Shown one piece after another: positions 1-7,342 of a DNA stretch of 7,342 bases. The position numbers and the translations under genes are program-made. The DNA comes from an uncultured Clostridia bacterium (GTDB lineage: Bacteria; Bacillota_A; Clostridia; Oscillospirales; Acutalibacteraceae). The stretch's first letter is position 1, and every line of letters starts with the position of its first letter. Under the pieces are notes generated by a model, which was given only the letters and a program-made list of their open reading frames with translations, did no database searches and was not told where the DNA came from. The stretch is from the NCBI GenBank assembly GCA_944380625.1, contig CALWIE010000161.1, positions 1-7,342 of the forward strand. Reading direction: 5' to 3'.

Positions 1-216
1 GACCGGCTGCCGGAGCTGATCCGGGAGGGAAACCTGCAGAAGCTCTATTTCTGCTGAGGCAAGGAGGAATTCCTCTACGACCGGTAACTGGCCTTTAAAG
101 AATACGCCCAAGGGCTGGGCCTGCCCGCCATCTTTGAGGAGGAAGAGGGCTACACCCACGAGTGGCGCTTCTGGGACCGGTACATCCAAAAGGCTTTGGA
201 CTTCTTCGGGCTGTAA
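1..216 (+). pseudogene. 3' remnant of an alpha/beta-hydrolase esterase gene (tributyrin esterase / EstA-like), two internal stops
   Basis: Reading frame 1 gives an esterase-like C-terminus, LYFC*GKEEFLYDR*LAFKEY and onward, ending in a THEWRFWDRYIQKALDFFGL tail and TAA at 214-216. The HEWxFWD block matches the region around the catalytic histidine in the putative-esterase (EstA / S-formylglutathione hydrolase-like) family, and the GKEEFLY block corresponds to the stretch that normally carries the catalytic aspartate (GTEDFLY), here Glu. The frame is broken by TGA at 55-57 and TAA at 88-90, with no frameshift, so both look like point nonsense mutations. The upstream half lies outside the window. 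Recoding is unlikely because two different stop codons are involved, and TGA and TAA both end intact genes nearby. The family call rests on a short C-terminal segment. Confidence 0.72.
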
Positions 217-232
217 AACCCGGGAGGGATAC

Positions 233-1989: not shown

Positions 1990-3006
1990 TCAGTTAAAGC
2001 CGAAGACCTTCTGGCTCAGGCGGTAGGCCTGGAGGGTGAACCACCGGCTGGGGGCGGAGCGGGAGCGGAGCACCCGGCCGAAAAACCGGTGGGCCAAAAG
2101 GGCGTAATGGCGGGGGTAGTCCCGCTCCATATCGGCCCAGAACTGGCGCTCCCGCTCCAGGTGCTCCGGGGTGCCGGAGCGGAACAGCAGCACGCAGGAC
2201 ACGGTGGTGACAATCTCCAGGTAGTTTAGGAGATACCGGCGCAGGCGCGGGTCCTCCACCTGGTCCAAGTCCACCTGGCCCAGCATGAGCCAGTTGACCT
2301 TGAGCTGCTGGTCGATGCGGCGGATCATCACCTGCTCTTGGACGGACTGGTCCTCCCGGCCGATGAAGTAGTGGTAAAATACCTGGTCCACATAGTAGAG
2401 GGTCTTCACCTGGGCCATGGGCACGTAGACAAACAGGTTGTCCACGTAGAAGGTGTGATGGGGCAGCTGCAGGCCGCTGTCCCGCAAAAGCTGGGTGCGG
2501 TAAATCACCGAGTGCATCAAGAGGTAGTGGCCCTTGGGGAAGGCGCCCACTTCCTCCCAGCGGAGCACCCGATCTGTGGGCAGGGTGCGGGGGTAACGCA
2601 TCACCTTTTTGTGCTTTGCCCCCACCTTGTCGTAGACAAAGTCGCTGACCACCATGTCCACCGGCTGGTGGGTCATTTGGAAGCGGCGCAGGAGCTTTAG
2701 AAGCTCCTTTAGGACCTGGGGATCCACCCAGTCGTCGCTGTCCACCACTTTGAAGTAGAGGCCCGAGGCGTTCTCCAGGCCCCTCATCACCGCCCCGCCG
2801 TGGCCCGCGTTCTCCTGGTGGATGGCCCGGACGATGGCGGGGTATCTCTCCTGGTACTCGTCGGCGATGGCGGCGGTGCCGTCCTGAGAGCCGTCGTCCA
2901 CGATGAGGATCTCCACCTCCTCCCCTCCGGGCAGCAGGGTCTCCACGCAGTGACGCATGTAGTCTTGGGAATTGTAGCAGGGCACTACTACGGACAATAG
3001 CTTCAT
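1990..3006 (-). CDS. Family 2 glycosyltransferase (GT-A fold)
   Basis: A 338-aa predicted cytoplasmic glycosyltransferase that moves a sugar from a nucleotide-sugar donor to a glycan acceptor. The N-terminus LLSVVVPCYN (3-12), the IVDDGSQDGT nucleotide-binding block (35-44) and KVVDSDDWVDP (86-96), carrying the DxD-type metal and donor site, define GT2. The C-terminal third (about 220-338) is helical and basic with no recognised motif; no membrane segment is evident. ATG at 3004-3006 is preferred: AAAGGAG is nine bases upstream and the protein begins directly with the GT2 core strand. A longer frame to 3027 would add seven residues overlapping the RBS. It lies between the sulfotransferase gene (66-base gap) and glf (49-base gap), which suggests one surface-glycan pathway. 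The sugar cannot be told from sequence; a galactofuranosyl role is possible only from the glf neighbour. Confidence 0.93.
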   Translation of the reverse strand: MKLLSVVVPCYNSQDYMRHCVETLLPGGEEVEILIVDDGSQDGTAAIADEYQERYPAIVRAIHQENAGHGGAVMRGLENASGLYFKVVDSDDWVDPQVLKELLKLLRRFQMTHQPVDMVVSDFVYDKVGAKHKKVMRYPRTLPTDRVLRWEEVGAFPKGHYLLMHSVIYRTQLLRDSGLQLPHHTFYVDNLFVYVPMAQVKTLYYVDQVFYHYFIGREDQSVQEQVMIRRIDQQLKVNWLMLGQVDLDQVEDPRLRRYLLNYLEIVTTVSCVLLFRSGTPEHLERERQFWADMERDYPRHYALLAHRFFGRVLRSRSAPSRWFTLQAYRLSQKVFGFN

Positions 3007-3015
3007 GGGTGATCT

Positions 3016-3042
3016 CTCCTTTTGCAAAGGGGCTTCTCCCCT
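3016..3042 (-). promoter_or_regulatory. Possible RBS-masking hairpin ahead of the GT2 gene
   Basis: In the minus-strand transcript, CCTTT-GCA-AAAGG (3018-3030) forms a 5-bp hairpin that would pair most of the GT2 Shine-Dalgarno (AAAGGAG, 3016-3022). An alternative stem AGGGG/CCCCT (3028-3032 with 3038-3042, 5-base loop) uses overlapping bases, so the two exclude each other. Both are short, and this may be chance in a GC-rich gap. Confidence 0.22.
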
Positions 3043-3072: not shown

Positions 3073-4881
3073 TCACTCCCGCAAAAACCAGAAGCCCTCG
3101 AAATCGCCTTTCATCACCCGGTAGCCGTTGGCGGTGCAGGTGTAGTTGTAGCGGCGGATGAGCCCGCCCTCCAGGGTGTACTCCTCGAAGCACTGGTGGA
3201 CGCCGTTGTTGACCACATAGGTGTCCCCCCGCCACTGGGCGTTGGACACCAGGCTGGAGTAGGGCAGGTCGAAGGAGCCGCACAGGGAAAAGGTTCCCGC
3301 GGCCTCGTCCACCAGGTAGAAATACACGTGGGAATTGGCGTCCCCGTCGATGGTGGAAGAGGTGCTCACCTCTTCGGAGACCTCCACCTGGAAGTCGTCC
3401 CGGCTGGACATGGCGTAGTAGTTGTTGTCGTAAACCCGCAGGTAGAGCTGGCCCTCCCCCGCCTGGGGCAGTCCCAGGGCGTCGACCTCCGCGGTGGTCA
3501 TGCGCTCCACGTCGTGCTGGCCGTACTGGAAGGGGAAGTCCCCCTCCGGCTCCAGAGAGTATTCCGCAAAGTCCGTACCCTCCCAGAAGGCGGGGTCCCC
3601 GGCCAGCCACTGGATCTCCGGCTCCTCCCCCAGGGCGCACTTGATGATGGTGGAGGTCTCCCGGGAGCTGACGATGATGGCGTTGTCCTCCTCTATGTAT
3701 TGGAGGGAGTTCAGGTGCAGCCAGTCCCACTCCCCTTCGCTCCACAGGCCGAAGGGGTCCGTGGCCTGGACGGGGCGGGTGATGTCAAAATAGCTTTGGA
3801 ACACCTGCGTAAAGTCCACAATGTGCGCGACTTCCCCCGTTTCCAAATCCACCTGGAGCACCTGGTCCTCCACCGTCTCCCCCCGGGTGTCGGTGGCCAG
3901 GGCCAGAAGGGTCCCCTCGGGGCCCCAGTTGATGTCGTGGTGGAGCTCAAACTCCCCCAGATCGAACACCTGGGTCACCTGGCCGAAGCGGTTGAAGCGG
4001 GCAATTTTATTGCCGCCCACACAGGTGATGAGGGAGCCGTCCCCGTCCCAGAGGAACCGGTCGGCGTGATAGCCCTCCATCACCAGCTCGTAGCGGAGGA
4101 CGCCGCTGTTGTCGAAAAAGAAGGTGTAGCCGTAGTAATCCCCCAGGCCCATGGCGTAATAGAGCCCCTGGGAGAGCTGGGAGGCCTCCACGTCCCCGTC
4201 CTCGTACTCCAGTTGGGACTCAAACCCGGAGAGGGACTCGGGCATGGAGATGGTGAAGGAAAACTCCTCCTCCCTCCCCTGGCGGGTGACAGTTTGCAGG
4301 GTGACGGTGTTCTCCTCCCCTGGCACCAGACCGATGAGCAAAAACTCCTGGAGGCGGCTGTAACCGTTCTTCCCCTGGTTGTTGGCGGCGGCGGTGTAGT
4401 CCGGGACGGACCCGCCCTCCACGTGGACGGTGTAGCGGACCTGGGTGGGGACGTCCGTGTGGAAGTACAGGTACAGCCCGTTGGATCCGGTGCCGAAGGG
4501 GTTTAGGATCGCCAAGGGGTTCTCCAAGGTGAAGCCCCCCTGGGGGGCGTCCTTCTGCTGCTGGAGCAGGGTGTAGGCAAGCCTGTCCTGGACCTTCTCG
4601 TCGTAATAGGTGAAGCCCTCCTCCTCGAACTCATCGGGGATGATCTGGGTGATCTGGATGCTGGCCTGCGCCGGATCGGTGTAGACCGTCACCTGCTGGG
4701 AGGCCTCCCGGTCCGTCACGTCGCCGGTGTCCACCTCCCAGTCCTCCCGGGGCTGGATCTCCGATTGGATGAAGGAGCGGGTGGCCAGCCGGACAACACC
4801 GTACACAGCTACAGCCAGGACCACCAGCGCGGCGGCGGCAATCAGGAAGATGCGCGTCTTCTTTTTACTGTGCGCTTTCAA
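3073..4881 (-). CDS. Aryl-sulfate sulfotransferase, membrane-anchored (ASST family)
   Basis: A 602-aa PAPS-independent sulfotransferase that moves sulfate from one phenolic sulfate ester to another phenol. Residues 1-10 are basic (KKKTR). Residues 11-31 form one hydrophobic segment (IFLIAAAALVVLAVAVYGVV) without a lipobox, so the protein is probably anchored with the enzyme outside the cell. An N-terminal beta-rich domain (about 60-215) precedes the propeller domain. The four residues known as catalytic in E. coli ASST all have counterparts: His315 or His314 in ELHHDINWG, His389 in DWLHLNS, Arg407 in VSSRETS, and His456 in YGQHDVERM, the likely sulfohistidine. The start is TTG at 4879-4881: the next in-frame Met is residue 213, and AAAGGTGGAG lies about eight bases upstream. 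It is the first gene of the unit, under the promoter at 4954-4981. The physiological substrate is unknown. Confidence 0.92.
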   Translation of the reverse strand: MKAHSKKKTRIFLIAAAALVVLAVAVYGVVRLATRSFIQSEIQPREDWEVDTGDVTDREASQQVTVYTDPAQASIQITQIIPDEFEEEGFTYYDEKVQDRLAYTLLQQQKDAPQGGFTLENPLAILNPFGTGSNGLYLYFHTDVPTQVRYTVHVEGGSVPDYTAAANNQGKNGYSRLQEFLLIGLVPGEENTVTLQTVTRQGREEEFSFTISMPESLSGFESQLEYEDGDVEASQLSQGLYYAMGLGDYYGYTFFFDNSGVLRYELVMEGYHADRFLWDGDGSLITCVGGNKIARFNRFGQVTQVFDLGEFELHHDINWGPEGTLLALATDTRGETVEDQVLQVDLETGEVAHIVDFTQVFQSYFDITRPVQATDPFGLWSEGEWDWLHLNSLQYIEEDNAIIVSSRETSTIIKCALGEEPEIQWLAGDPAFWEGTDFAEYSLEPEGDFPFQYGQHDVERMTTAEVDALGLPQAGEGQLYLRVYDNNYYAMSSRDDFQVEVSEEVSTSSTIDGDANSHVYFYLVDEAAGTFSLCGSFDLPYSSLVSNAQWRGDTYVVNNGVHQCFEEYTLEGGLIRRYNYTCTANGYRVMKGDFEGFWFLRE

Positions 4882-5071: not shown

Positions 5072-5152
5072 TCAGAGGGCCCCTCCCCGCTCAAATTCCG
5101 CCCGGAGTTTTTCCAAGGCTTTTTTCTCAATGCGGGATACATAACGCCGCGC
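5072..5152 (-). pseudogene. sigK: C-terminal fragment of sporulation sigma factor sigma-K, split by an inserted element
   Basis: The minus-strand frame ending at TGA (5072-5074) reads RYVSRIEKKALEKLRAEF then ERGGAL. This matches the end of region 4.2 of sigma-K proteins, where the recognition helix continues ISRSYVSRIEKRAL plus a short basic tail. Sigma-E, -F and -G differ here (for example SYISRLEKR or QVSRLEK), so sigma-K is the best fit. About 23 codons (5075-5143) are sigma-like. The next upstream codons degrade, with TAG at 5153-5155. There is no start codon in the frame. In B. subtilis and C. difficile sigK is interrupted by a skin element and rebuilt by serine-recombinase excision in the mother cell. 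The recombinase beside this fragment, on the same strand, suggests the same design. The fragment is short, so the family call rests on about 14 residues plus context. Confidence 0.8.
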
Positions 5153-5158
5153 CTAACG
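5141..5158. other. Probable attachment-site junction (host sigK / element boundary)
   Basis: Sigma-K homology fades around 5141-5152, between the last sigma-like codon (Tyr, 5141-5143) and the recombinase stop at 5172. The interval holds a direct repeat TAACG (5142-5146 and 5154-5158) spaced by CCGCGCC. The exact crossover dinucleotide cannot be fixed without the other end or an unoccupied sigK. Confidence 0.5.
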
Positions 5159-5171
5159 TAAGCGATGCCCT

Positions 5172-6755
5172 TTAGGAAATCACCTCCACCTCGCGGAAGC
5201 GGAACTTGATGAGGATCTCTTTTTTCTCGGTGAGCTCCACCCGCTCGATGAGGCTGACCAGCAGCTCCCGGTTTTCCCCAGCGGTCTCCATGAATCGCCG
5301 CACCAGCTCTCTGGCCCTGTCCTCCCGGCAGGCAGGGTTCTTTTTTTGCGGCTCCAGCGCCAGCGCCGGCCGCCTCTCCTCCAGCTGCGCCCGCTCCCCC
5401 TTGATCCGGCTGAAAATCCGTTGGAAGTCCTCCTCTGGAAGCAGCCCGCTGAGGCGGTCCGTGTACATCCGGTCCAGGCGGGCGGTAAGGCTGCCGATCT
5501 GGGATTGGAGCGCTTGAATTTCCGACTCCAAGCTGTCTTGCCCCGCGGCCTGCTCCAGGGCCTCCCGGGCCACGGGGAGCAGCTCGTCCGGGTTCAGATA
5601 TGCCTGGCAGACCTCCCGCACCTTGGCGAGCACGGCTTCGTTCACCCTTTCCTCCTTGATGGAATGACAGGTGCAAAACCCCGCCTTGGTGAACCGCTGG
5701 TAGGTGCGGCAGACGAAGTACAGCACGTCCTCTCCCCTGGCGTTTTTCCGGTTGAGCACCGCCAGGGGACAGCCGCACTCGTGGCAAAAGATCAGCCCTT
5801 TCAGAAGGAAGTCATAGGTGCGGCTTCGGGTATGCTTGCGGCTGTTCACTAGCATCTGCACCTTCTGAAAGGTTTCCGGGTCGACGACCGGCTCATGGGT
5901 CCCTTCCACGACCACCCAGTTTTCCGGGGACTGCCGCAGGCACTTCTTGGATTTGTAGCTGACCTTCACCGTGCGCCCCTGGACCATGTTGCCGATGTAG
6001 GTCTCGTTTTTCAGCATTTCGGAAATCCGCTCGCCGCTCCACAGGCCCGTGTAAGGACCGCGCCTTGCAGCCGGAAGGTCCGCGTAGGCGGCGGGAGTGG
6101 GAACGCCCTCCTCGTTGAGGGCGGCGGCAATCTTGCGGCAGCTCATGCCGGAGAGGGCCAGGGAAAAGATCCGCCGCACCACAGCCGCCGCTTCCCCGTC
6201 GATGACGATTCTATTCTTCTCCGTGGGGTGCATCTTGTAGCCGTATACGGGCTTGCCGCCGATGAACTGGCCCTTCCGCTGCTTATCCCGCTTGACGGAC
6301 TTGATCTTCTTGGAGATGTCCTTGGCGTACATGTCGTTCATGATGGCCCGGAAGGGGGTGATGTCGTTGGCGGTGGAATCCACGCCGGTGTCGATGCCGT
6401 CAAGCAGGGAGATGTACCGCACCCGGTGCTCCGGAAAGTACCGCTCCATGTAGTGGCCGGTCAGGATGTAATCCCGGCCCAGCCGGGAGAGGTCCTTGGT
6501 GATGACCATGTTGACCCTCTTCGCCTCAATGTCGGCGATCATCCGCTGGAAACTGGGGCGGTCGAAGTTGGCGCCGCTCCAGCCGTCGTCCACATAGGTG
6601 TCAAAGACGGGAAGCCGGTGCCGCTCTACAAACTCCCGCAGCAGAGACTCTTGATTCTGCACACTTTGGGACGGCCCCTCGCTTTCGTCCTCCTTGGACA
6701 ATCTGATGTATAAAGCCGCATGGTAATCCATGGGGTTTCCTATCTCCAAGTACAT
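5172..6755 (-). CDS. Large serine recombinase (SpoIVCA-like site-specific recombinase)
   Basis: A 527-aa recombinase that cuts DNA through a serine 5'-phosphodiester intermediate to integrate or excise its element. The resolvase-type catalytic domain spans about 12-160: ALYIRLSKED carries nucleophile Ser20 with Arg18, and DLSRLGRD carries Arg91 and Arg94. The recombinase DNA-binding domain (about 165-300) contains GKPVYGYK and SGMSCRKIAAALNEEGVPTP. A zinc ribbon (about 320-365) has CHEC (Cys324, Cys327), Cys349 and Cys361 or Cys363. A coiled coil (about 405-462) follows, then a basic C-terminal tail. All catalytic residues are present, so it looks active. The start is uncertain: ATG at 6755 (AGGGG six bases upstream) or ATG at 6731 (AGGA six bases upstream), the latter giving MDYHAALYIRLSKED. 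The stop lies about 20 bases from the sigK junction. That position suggests it excises this element to rebuild sigK. Confidence 0.95.
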   Translation of the reverse strand: MYLEIGNPMDYHAALYIRLSKEDESEGPSQSVQNQESLLREFVERHRLPVFDTYVDDGWSGANFDRPSFQRMIADIEAKRVNMVITKDLSRLGRDYILTGHYMERYFPEHRVRYISLLDGIDTGVDSTANDITPFRAIMNDMYAKDISKKIKSVKRDKQRKGQFIGGKPVYGYKMHPTEKNRIVIDGEAAAVVRRIFSLALSGMSCRKIAAALNEEGVPTPAAYADLPAARRGPYTGLWSGERISEMLKNETYIGNMVQGRTVKVSYKSKKCLRQSPENWVVVEGTHEPVVDPETFQKVQMLVNSRKHTRSRTYDFLLKGLIFCHECGCPLAVLNRKNARGEDVLYFVCRTYQRFTKAGFCTCHSIKEERVNEAVLAKVREVCQAYLNPDELLPVAREALEQAAGQDSLESEIQALQSQIGSLTARLDRMYTDRLSGLLPEEDFQRIFSRIKGERAQLEERRPALALEPQKKNPACREDRARELVRRFMETAGENRELLVSLIERVELTEKKEILIKFRFREVEVIS

Positions 6756-6781
6756 GGGATGCCCCTGAGATCAGCAGCCGC

Positions 6782-6925
6782 TCATCGCAAGGGGGATGGC
6801 GTAAAGGGGGGATTTTCCCCAAGGGCGCGGCGCACGAACAACCGGAACGATTCTTCCATCAGCTGGGGCAGGCGGGTCTCCCCTTCGGAATAGACACAGC
6901 GGACAACGATCTCTTTCTGCTTCAT
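6782..6925 (-). CDS. Small protein of unknown function upstream of the recombinase (47 aa)
   Basis: The ORF starts at ATG 6923-6925 with a near-perfect AAAGGAGG seven bases upstream, stronger than either recombinase RBS, and ends 26 bases before the longer recombinase start. The product begins MKQKEIVVRCVYSEGETRLP and continues with an amphipathic stretch, LMEESFRLFVRRALGE, then a Pro-rich tail. It has no Cys pair, membrane segment or recognised domain. The compact strand-then-helix look and position suggest an accessory protein, such as a recombination directionality factor or regulator, but that is guesswork from context. A longer frame extends to 7033 but would run through the terminator at 6986-7020, so the internal start is preferred. 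Confidence 0.7.
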   Translation of the reverse strand: MKQKEIVVRCVYSEGETRLPQLMEESFRLFVRRALGENPPFTPSPLR

Positions 6926-6985
6926 CTCCACTCCTCCTTTGATCCATCGTATGCGCGCCCGCAGCTGTTTTTTCCTGTCCAGCCG

Positions 6986-7020
6986 AAAAAGAAAGATGGC
7001 CCGGGGCCGCCCGTGCCATC
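6986..7020 (-). terminator. Rho-independent terminator at the CRISPR trailer side
   Basis: On the minus strand GATGGC (7015-7020) pairs with GCCATC (6995-7000) and CGGG (7010-7013) pairs with CCCG (7002-7005), separated by one mismatch, with a 4-base loop. A T-rich tract TTTCTTTTT follows (6986-6994). It lies 68 bases beyond the last degenerate CRISPR repeat and would stop array transcription before the small ORF and recombinase. Confidence 0.75.
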
Positions 7021-7087
7021 CCAAATCCCTCACAGCCTATCGGACCCGCTCATCCACGGCATGGCGTTTCCCGGTCGCCGCCAAACG

Positions 7088-7115
7088 GGCTCACCCCCGC
7101 CCATGCGGGGAATTG
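7088..7115 (-). repeat. Degenerate terminal CRISPR repeat
   Basis: This 28-nt unit sits exactly one 61-nt period before the first good repeat. It keeps TCACCCC at positions 4-10 and GCGGGGAA at 18-25. It differs from the other copies at position 3, in the loop (about 14-17) and at positions 26-27. Decay of this kind marks the oldest, trailer-side end of an array. Confidence 0.85.
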
Positions 7116-7342
7116 GCAGCCTGCCTATCACGGGCAACGGCTGTCTGGGGATCACCCCTGCGAGCGCGGGGAAAAGAAATTCGGGCCTGGGGGGCCTGGG
7201 GCGGGTCCTGGATCACCCCCGCAGGCGCGGGGAAAAGGGTCCGCAGACCTGCAGGGAGTGGTGTGGGGGAGGATCACCCCTGCGGGCGCGGGGAAAAGGC
7301 TGACTTATCGCGGTACCATCGGCGGCCGGTAGGATCACCCCC
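7088..7342 (-). CRISPR. CRISPR array, type I-E-like repeats, trailer end (continues past window)
   Basis: Repeats of 28 nt start at 7149, 7210, 7271 and (cut by the window end) 7332, preceded by a degenerate copy at 7088; the period is exactly 61. Spacers of 33 nt lie at 7116-7148, 7177-7209, 7238-7270 and 7299-7331 and are mutually unrelated. On the + strand each repeat begins GGATCACCCC and ends GCGGGGAAAAG. The reverse complement (CTTTTCCCCGC ... GGGGTGATCC) has the layout of known type I-E repeats, so the guide strand is probably minus and the leader lies beyond 7342. The stem pairs repeat positions 8-13 with 18-23. The three full repeats differ at positions 11, 14 and 15, as expected near a decaying trailer end. 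In the minus-strand RNA, position 11 makes an A-C mismatch in two of the three. No cas gene is visible. Confidence 0.95.

What the first reader, a model, noticed from the sequence alone, without database searches (positions are those of the whole stretch)
5072..7342. CRISPR array apparently carried inside a sigK-interrupting skin-like element
The sigK C-terminal fragment fixes the host/element boundary at about 5141-5155. The recombinase, small ORF and CRISPR array all lie on the element side with no N-terminal sigma sequence before the window end. Known skin elements are remnant prophages that the mother cell discards at sporulation. A type I-E-like array as cargo would be kept in vegetative cells and the spore line but lost from the terminal mother cell, and could defend the element's niche against rival phages. 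I do not know of a described example.
Basis: partly seen in the sequence, partly recalled or inferred. Interest (0 to 1): 0.82.

Follow-up and report, generated by a model that had tools for sequence, protein, structure and literature searches.

The report
CRISPR array inside sigK-splitting mobile element
A probable gut bacterium carries a CRISPR immune memory inside a piece of mobile DNA that splits a spore-forming gene; a CRISPR array on such an element is already known in another bacterium, but this one belongs to a little-studied family of sigK-splitting elements, several of which carry genes that look like anti-virus defences.

Summary
The window carries one end of a sigK-interrupting serine-recombinase element: sigK C-terminal fragment (5072-5143), attachment core 5136-5143, 527-aa recombinase, conserved small ORF, then a type I-E-like array (five repeats, 61-bp period, cut by the window end). 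Of the 80 loci kept with a 71-87% identical recombinase, 74 have a sigK half just past it. In 21 elements both halves are held (2.4-103 kb apart); joining them at the shared core restores the sigK frame in 16 of 18 tried. A genome of the nearest genus has an unbroken sigK beside the same genes. The distal end known from relatives (25-37 of 38 matches) is absent before the window ends (19; background 18-22), so the array lies inside the element if the contig is sound. Corrections: a CRISPR array on a skin element is already in print for Clostridioides difficile, and many relatives are short cargo islands rather than plain prophage remnants. Cargo of 17 of them is rich in defence-type genes (251 PADLOC families in 82 ORFs, 21 in 52 host-flank ORFs). 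No array was found in the stretches held of relatives, but 29 of 80 loci have under 2 kb of element. Cas genes, this genome's sigK N-half, spacer targets and excision were not seen.

The parts
5072..5143 (-). C-terminal fragment of sigK (YVSRIEKKALEKLRAEFERGGAL, stop 5072-5074), host side
   Evidence: unbroken sigK with a closely similar ending upstream of the same host genes in L161, and in L160 at this site
5136..5170 (-). attR: core TATGTATC (5136-5143) plus element arm GGGCATCGCTTACGTTAGGCG (5150-5170)
   Evidence: similar arm and core 3' of the recombinase in relatives; mirror-image arm at the other end
5172..6755 (-). large serine recombinase, 527 aa
   Evidence: Pfam Resolvase, Recombinase, Zn_ribbon_recom; 71-87% identical relatives, 74 of 80 beside a sigK half
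6782..6928 (-). small ORF, 48 aa, conserved partner of the recombinase; function unknown
   Evidence: tblastn hits within 200 bp before the recombinase in 39 of 80 loci; no Pfam or NCBIfam match
7088..7115 (-). degenerate terminal CRISPR repeat (inferred leader-distal end)
   Evidence: 71% to the reference copy, in register
7149..7176 (-). CRISPR repeat, type I-E-like
7210..7237 (-). CRISPR repeat, type I-E-like
7271..7298 (-). CRISPR repeat, type I-E-like
7332..7342 (-). start of a fifth repeat, cut by the window end
7116..7148 (-). spacer of 33 nt (others at 7177-7209, 7238-7270, 7299-7331)
   Evidence: no exact match of any of the four in viral contigs
3073..4881 (-). host gene: arylsulfotransferase family
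   Evidence: Pfam Arylsulfotrans 1.9e-61; 71-78% identical in 4 of 29 genomes of the genus of G317
1990..3027 (-). host gene: family 2 glycosyltransferase
   Evidence: synteny in L162, L159, L160
837..1937 (-). host gene: UDP-galactopyranose mutase
   Evidence: TIGR00031 396 bits; synteny in L162, L163

Best explanation
The window shows the sigK C-terminal end of a skin-like element that splits sigK of an uncultured spore-former, by its relatives an Oscillospiraceae-type gut bacterium. Shown: recombinase, attR, sigK fragment and array here; both ends, in-frame rejoining and an unbroken site in relatives. Inferred: the serine recombinase cuts the element out as a circle in the mother cell during sporulation, probably with a directionality factor, so that sigK is rejoined there while growing cells and the spore line keep the element and its CRISPR array. 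Inferred: the array is interchangeable defence cargo, like the SIR2-HerA, Pycsar-type, Kiwa-type and Ppl-type genes in sister elements. Inferred: the array is read from right to left, its old end faces the recombinase, and type I-E cas genes, if in cis, lie to the right beyond the window.
For: 74 of the 80 loci kept (of 483 relatives found) have a sigK half next to the recombinase: 63 C-half and 9 N-half by script, L014 and L048 by eye. 17 complete elements of 2.4-9.8 kb, 3 more, and one of 103 kb in G004. Joining at the core gives a continuous ...SRSYVSR-E... sigK frame in 16 of 18. G342, in the genus with the closest flanking genes, has an unbroken sigK 6.4 kb before the arylsulfotransferase gene. 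No distal end in window 5200-7342: best 19 of 38, against 25-37 in 19 relatives (from which the consensus was taken by eye) and 18-22 in 40 background stretches. Arrays whose repeats differ from the window's degenerate pattern by one base stand beside cas genes: cas3e, 8e, 11e, 7e, 5e, 6e in G046, cas1e and cas2e in G278, cas7e in G364. Cargo: 251 PADLOC families in 82 element ORFs, 21 in 52 host-flank ORFs.
Against: No array was found in any of the 21 complete sister elements, nor in the other stretches held (80 loci, 19 further stretches), so the window is a single case; 29 of 80 loci have under 2 kb upstream of the recombinase, so their cargo was not seen. The contig ends inside the array, and reads are not at hand. 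The genome is not held, so a second complete sigK is not excluded. In the window the sigK end lies about 190 bp from the arylsulfotransferase gene, in the four relatives 2-7 kb. The array has only five repeats, some divergent. Excision was not observed.
Confidence: 0.76

Rival explanations
1. The contig is chimeric: an ordinary chromosomal type I-E array was joined by the assembler to the end of a sigK element.
For: No array was found in the stretches held of sister elements; contigs of relatives often end near the recombinase; the array is richer in G+C (0.694 against 0.607-0.625).
Against: About 160 bp separate the small ORF from the array and the repeat search of the window shows no repeat in 6930-7087; the degenerate terminal repeat faces the element, as at a real array end. 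Defence-type cargo is common in this place in sister elements.
Confidence: 0.13
2. The element has decayed: its distal end and the sigK N-half were lost or moved, so the array is now ordinary chromosome beside a remnant.
For: The genome is not held; neither the N-half nor attL is in the window.
Against: The recombinase is full length with its three domains and attR matches the family; 21 relatives keep both ends.
Confidence: 0.09
3. The array is cargo of the element but inactive: an orphan array without cas genes. (A variant of the best explanation; its confidence overlaps with it.)
For: Few repeats with several differences. cas7e is rare in the nearest genus: 1 of 29 genomes.
Against: The side where cas genes would lie is beyond the window; the one repeat-bearing genome of that genus has cas7e and a run of minus-strand ORFs there.
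Confidence: 0.3

Closest known systems
C. difficile skin element (skinCd)
   Same: Splits sigK, large serine recombinase, and carries a CRISPR array (PMC6563280 Table 1; PMC5154133; passages seen)
   Different: Other host; excision there needs the sigma-E-controlled factor CD1234 (PMC5025042, passages). The C. difficile array is type I-B (recalled). Whether the insertion point within sigK is the same was not tested
Bacillus subtilis skin element and sigK prophages of C. tetani and C. perfringens
   Same: Insertion in sigK; a serine recombinase in the C. tetani case (PMC5553647, passages); regulated excision in B. subtilis (recalled, and abstract of PMC5025042 in the listing)
   Different: Prophages or prophage-like; the complete relatives here of up to 10 kb are islands with many defence-type genes
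gin element in gerE of B. cereus and yin element in yabG of C. botulinum
   Same: Elements splitting a sporulation gene; gin is titled 'non prophage(-like)' (search listing)
   Different: Other target genes
Type I-E CRISPR-Cas of G046, G278 and G364
   Same: Repeats within one or two mismatches of the degenerate pattern, mostly 61-bp period
   Different: No sigK or related recombinase in the stretches fetched around them

Membership tests
sigK-intervening (skin) element | Insertion inside the sigK coding sequence | tested here: met
   C-half in the window; both halves in relatives; unbroken site in G342
sigK-intervening (skin) element | Element-encoded serine recombinase beside an attachment site | tested here: met
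sigK-intervening (skin) element | Precise excision restores the reading frame | tested here: inconclusive
   In-silico joining works in 16 of 18 relatives; the window's own N-half is not available
sigK-intervening (skin) element | Excision confined to the mother cell during sporulation | not testable with these tools
   needs sporulating cells
sigK-intervening (skin) element | Prophage or prophage-remnant gene content | tested here: inconclusive
   Window too short; no phage structural family named among 40 of 82 cargo ORFs of 17 short relatives; longer relatives were not surveyed for genes
Type I-E CRISPR array | 28-nt repeats with ~33-nt spacers, repeat like those of known type I-E loci | tested here: met
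Type I-E CRISPR-Cas system | cas3-cas8e-cas11-cas7-cas5-cas6e-cas1-cas2 genes | not testable with these tools
   beyond the window end; genome not held

The most novel reading that the evidence does not exclude
The residue-208 sigK elements of Oscillospiraceae-type gut bacteria are a large family of exchangeable defence islands. Developmental excision throws the immune genes, here an adaptive CRISPR memory, out of the dying mother cell and keeps them in the spore line, and the essential sporulation gene anchors the island in the genome.
Probability: 0.4. Interest if true: 0.75.

Novelty: new variant of a known kind. Interest (0 to 1): 0.52.

Why it matters
It links two fields that rarely meet: developmental gene rearrangement in spore formers and anti-phage defence. 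An element that breaks a sporulation gene must be cut out exactly for that gene to work, which could make it a stable carrier for immune genes. If confirmed, sigK elements would be a recurrent, easily searched home of defence cargo in common gut bacteria, with CRISPR as one kind.

Tried and rejected
Rejected: 'array is ordinary chromosome because the element ends between 6755 and 7088' (no attL-like site, and no sigK match at E 10 or better in 5200-7342). Rejected: 'the fragment is from sigE': the N-half of relative L012 scores better with SigK models (248 bits) than with SigE (194), and the 10 host genomes have a separate full-length match from model position 17-18 to 225-226, which I read as sigE.

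Led nowhere: exact search of the four full spacers in viral contigs; spacers against the loci held, up to 8 mismatches (the same search finds the window's own spacers); array against phages and plasmids (two unannotated faecal phage records with arrays, seven Propionibacterium phage records at E 0.8, and 39 plasmid records, 36 of them Streptomyces); repeat pattern in viral contigs; Rfam. Cas1 in 50 of the 80 host genomes: 14 have it. One search stopped with an error after printing the 80 loci. A first joining script placed the join wrongly and was replaced, where L021 and L078 still failed because their C-half lacks the literal ATGT core. One search was an empty script. No structure was predicted and the search for homologous proteins was not used.

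Rows dropped or limited: 80 of 483 recombinase relatives were kept by the tool. 6 of 80 loci (L004, L011, L027, L030, L049, L067) were not counted as sigK neighbours, though L067 has an N-half upstream. 1 of 53 control ORFs (L048:8031-8504, cut by the contig end) was left out. Pfam was run on 40 of 82 cargo ORFs; PADLOC on all 82 as a tally and on 11 with their own table. Of 20 genomes with the recombinase, one (G756) was not fetched.

Full report
What is there. The right end of the window holds, from left to right: the last 23 codons of a sigK-type gene on the minus strand, an attachment site, a 527-aa serine recombinase, a 48-aa ORF and a CRISPR array cut off by the window end. The array has repeats at 7088, 7149, 7210, 7271 and 7332, spaced 61 bases apart, with 33-nt spacers. 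The best three-way agreement of 28-mers is 25, against at most 14 in 60 dinucleotide shuffles. Reading from the element into the sigK fragment meets a stop three codons before it.

Which family. A scan of one genome per species found 483 recombinase relatives, of which the best 80 were kept, 71-87% identical. In 63 of 80 the sigK C-half follows the recombinase and in 9 of 80 the N-half stands there in reverse; in two more (L014, L048) the C-half is plain by eye. Six of 80 were not counted. So the recombinase is tied to one place in sigK, just after ISRSYVS, near residue 208 of my 227-residue query, in both orientations. In a sample of 394 genomes of the order of G317, 20 have the recombinase at E 1e-180 or better, 56-84% identical.

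Both ends. In 17 loci both halves are held, 2.4-9.8 kb apart. Further cases are L176, L185 and L187 and a 103-kb one in G004, 21 in all. Short elements are favoured by the 10-kb flank: of 25 C-half loci with at least 9.5 kb upstream, 12 show no N-half there. The element ends are mirror images: typically GGGCATCGTTTACAATAGGCG beside the C-half and TAATGTAAACGATGCCC beside the N-half. Joining the halves at the shared TATGTAT core gives a continuous sigK frame in 16 of 18 tried. The lengths printed there run from stop to stop, so they are not gene lengths; four products (L016, L028, L040, L048) are short because the gene is broken again upstream or the contig ends. The L012 N-half is best matched by SigK models.

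Host and unbroken site. The window's arylsulfotransferase, glycosyltransferase and galactopyranose mutase have 69-85% identical counterparts in the same order in genomes of one genus. One of these genomes (G338, L077) is titled 'uncultured Neglecta sp.'; NCBI places that name in Oscillospiraceae. In that genus G342 has an unbroken sigK 6.4 kb before the arylsulfotransferase gene, G352 is broken only near residue 58, and G317 and G338 are broken at the window's site. This is the expected pattern of a mobile insertion. A difference: the distance from sigK to the arylsulfotransferase gene is about 190 bp in the window and 2-7 kb in the four relatives.

Is the array inside? The distal end was looked for in 5200-7342 with a 38-base consensus taken by eye from relatives. 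Nineteen of those relatives score 25-37 at their true site; the window's best is 19, and 40 background stretches give 18-22. A sigK query finds nothing there even at E 10. So the element does not end before the window does, and the array lies inside it, provided that the contig is a true join and the element is not decayed. Reads were not available, and the genome is not held.

What kind of array. In G046 a repeat one mismatch from the degenerate pattern follows a cas operon named cas3e, cas8e, cas11e, cas7e, cas5e, cas6e. In G278 cas2e and cas1e stand beside it. In G364, of the nearest genus, the array has cas7e and a run of minus-strand ORFs to its right. By this layout I infer that the window's array is transcribed leftwards, that its oldest end, with the degenerate repeat, faces the recombinase, and that any cas genes lie to the right. 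In that genus only 1 of 29 genomes has the repeat (up to 2 mismatches) and the same one has cas7e, so a type I-E locus there is rare and plausibly acquired.

Cargo of sister elements. Named cargo in the 17 complete elements includes HerA with SIR2 (L012), SIR2 with a ParA-like ATPase (L002), two Pycsar-type cyclases (L016), KwaB and an AriA/GajA-like ATPase (L024), a PtuA-like ATPase (L031), Ppl (L072), Fic proteins (L002, L012, L016, L019, L021) and tyrosine recombinases. Some cargo is not defence: shikimate-pathway genes in L048, a glycosidase in L073. As a control, 82 element ORFs (24,372 aa) matched 251 PADLOC families, and 52 ORFs from the host side of the same loci matched 21. Family counts are inflated by related ATPase models, and the control also holds a Cas12f-like and an RtcR-like protein, so this is an indication, not a measured enrichment. 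Leaving Fic aside, at least 6 of 17 elements have a defence-type protein (L002, L012, L016, L024, L031, L072).

Against the reading. A detector that finds the window's array found none in the 80 loci, nor in the 19 further stretches, which with L138 and L139 cover the 103-kb element of G004 (with another detector on the 80). The window is thus a single case within what was seen. But 29 of 80 loci hold under 2 kb upstream of the recombinase, and several of the 19 stretches are 2-5 kb, so arrays in those elements would be missed. Spacers have no exact match in the viral collection, and none within 8 mismatches in 2.07 Mb of held loci, some overlapping.

Known or new. A CRISPR array on a sigK element is not new. 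PMC5154133 states that C. difficile arrays occur on prophages, plasmids and the skin element (passages), and PMC6563280 lists CRISPR 6 with the skin locus CD1233.1 (passages). How skinCd works, with recombinase CD1231 and directionality factor CD1234, is in PMC5025042 (passages); it also says the B. subtilis and C. difficile elements sit at different sites. Searches for sigK with Oscillospiraceae and recombinase (0 papers), with defence system and integration site (1), for skin element with defense and CRISPR (5), for sigK with mobile genetic element and serine recombinase (4) and with anti-phage (5) listed no paper whose title or abstract start describes defence islands in sigK. Most listed papers were not opened, and subscription papers are mostly not held.

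Mechanism. Shown by sequence: insertion, family-specific ends, in-frame rejoining in relatives, position of the array. Inferred: excision in the mother cell only, loss of the array with the dying cell, inheritance by the spore, and immune use of the array. The small ORF beside the recombinase is a candidate partner and no more than that.

Noticed in passing
L137 (G004), L160 (G352), L059, L043, L016, L028, L035, L179: sigK is also broken at two other places, near residues 58-61 and 104, with distant (20-25% identical) serine recombinases beside the breaks; G004 has two insertions in one sigK, about 17 kb and 103 kb long.
   Followed up: partly
L097, L098, L099, L105: Viral-collection contigs with several serine recombinases in a row, one of them a closer relative (71-93%, in part over a fragment) of the window's.
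   Followed up: no
window 1-217: Plus-strand coding-like stretch resembling an esterase C-terminus (recalled, not searched) with an in-frame TGA and TAA read by eye: broken gene or sequencing error.
   Followed up: no
L002, L012, L019, L024, L028, L040: These sigK elements hold a tyrosine recombinase besides the serine recombinase.
   Followed up: no
L152, L153: Two unannotated 'Bacteriophage sp.' records from human faeces carry type I-E-like arrays; L152 also has cas3e and cas2e, so it may be bacterial DNA.
   Followed up: partly
L019 contig, G312:C20:138438-139307: A Cas1 gene about 13 kb beyond the sigK C-half, outside the element.
   Followed up: partly
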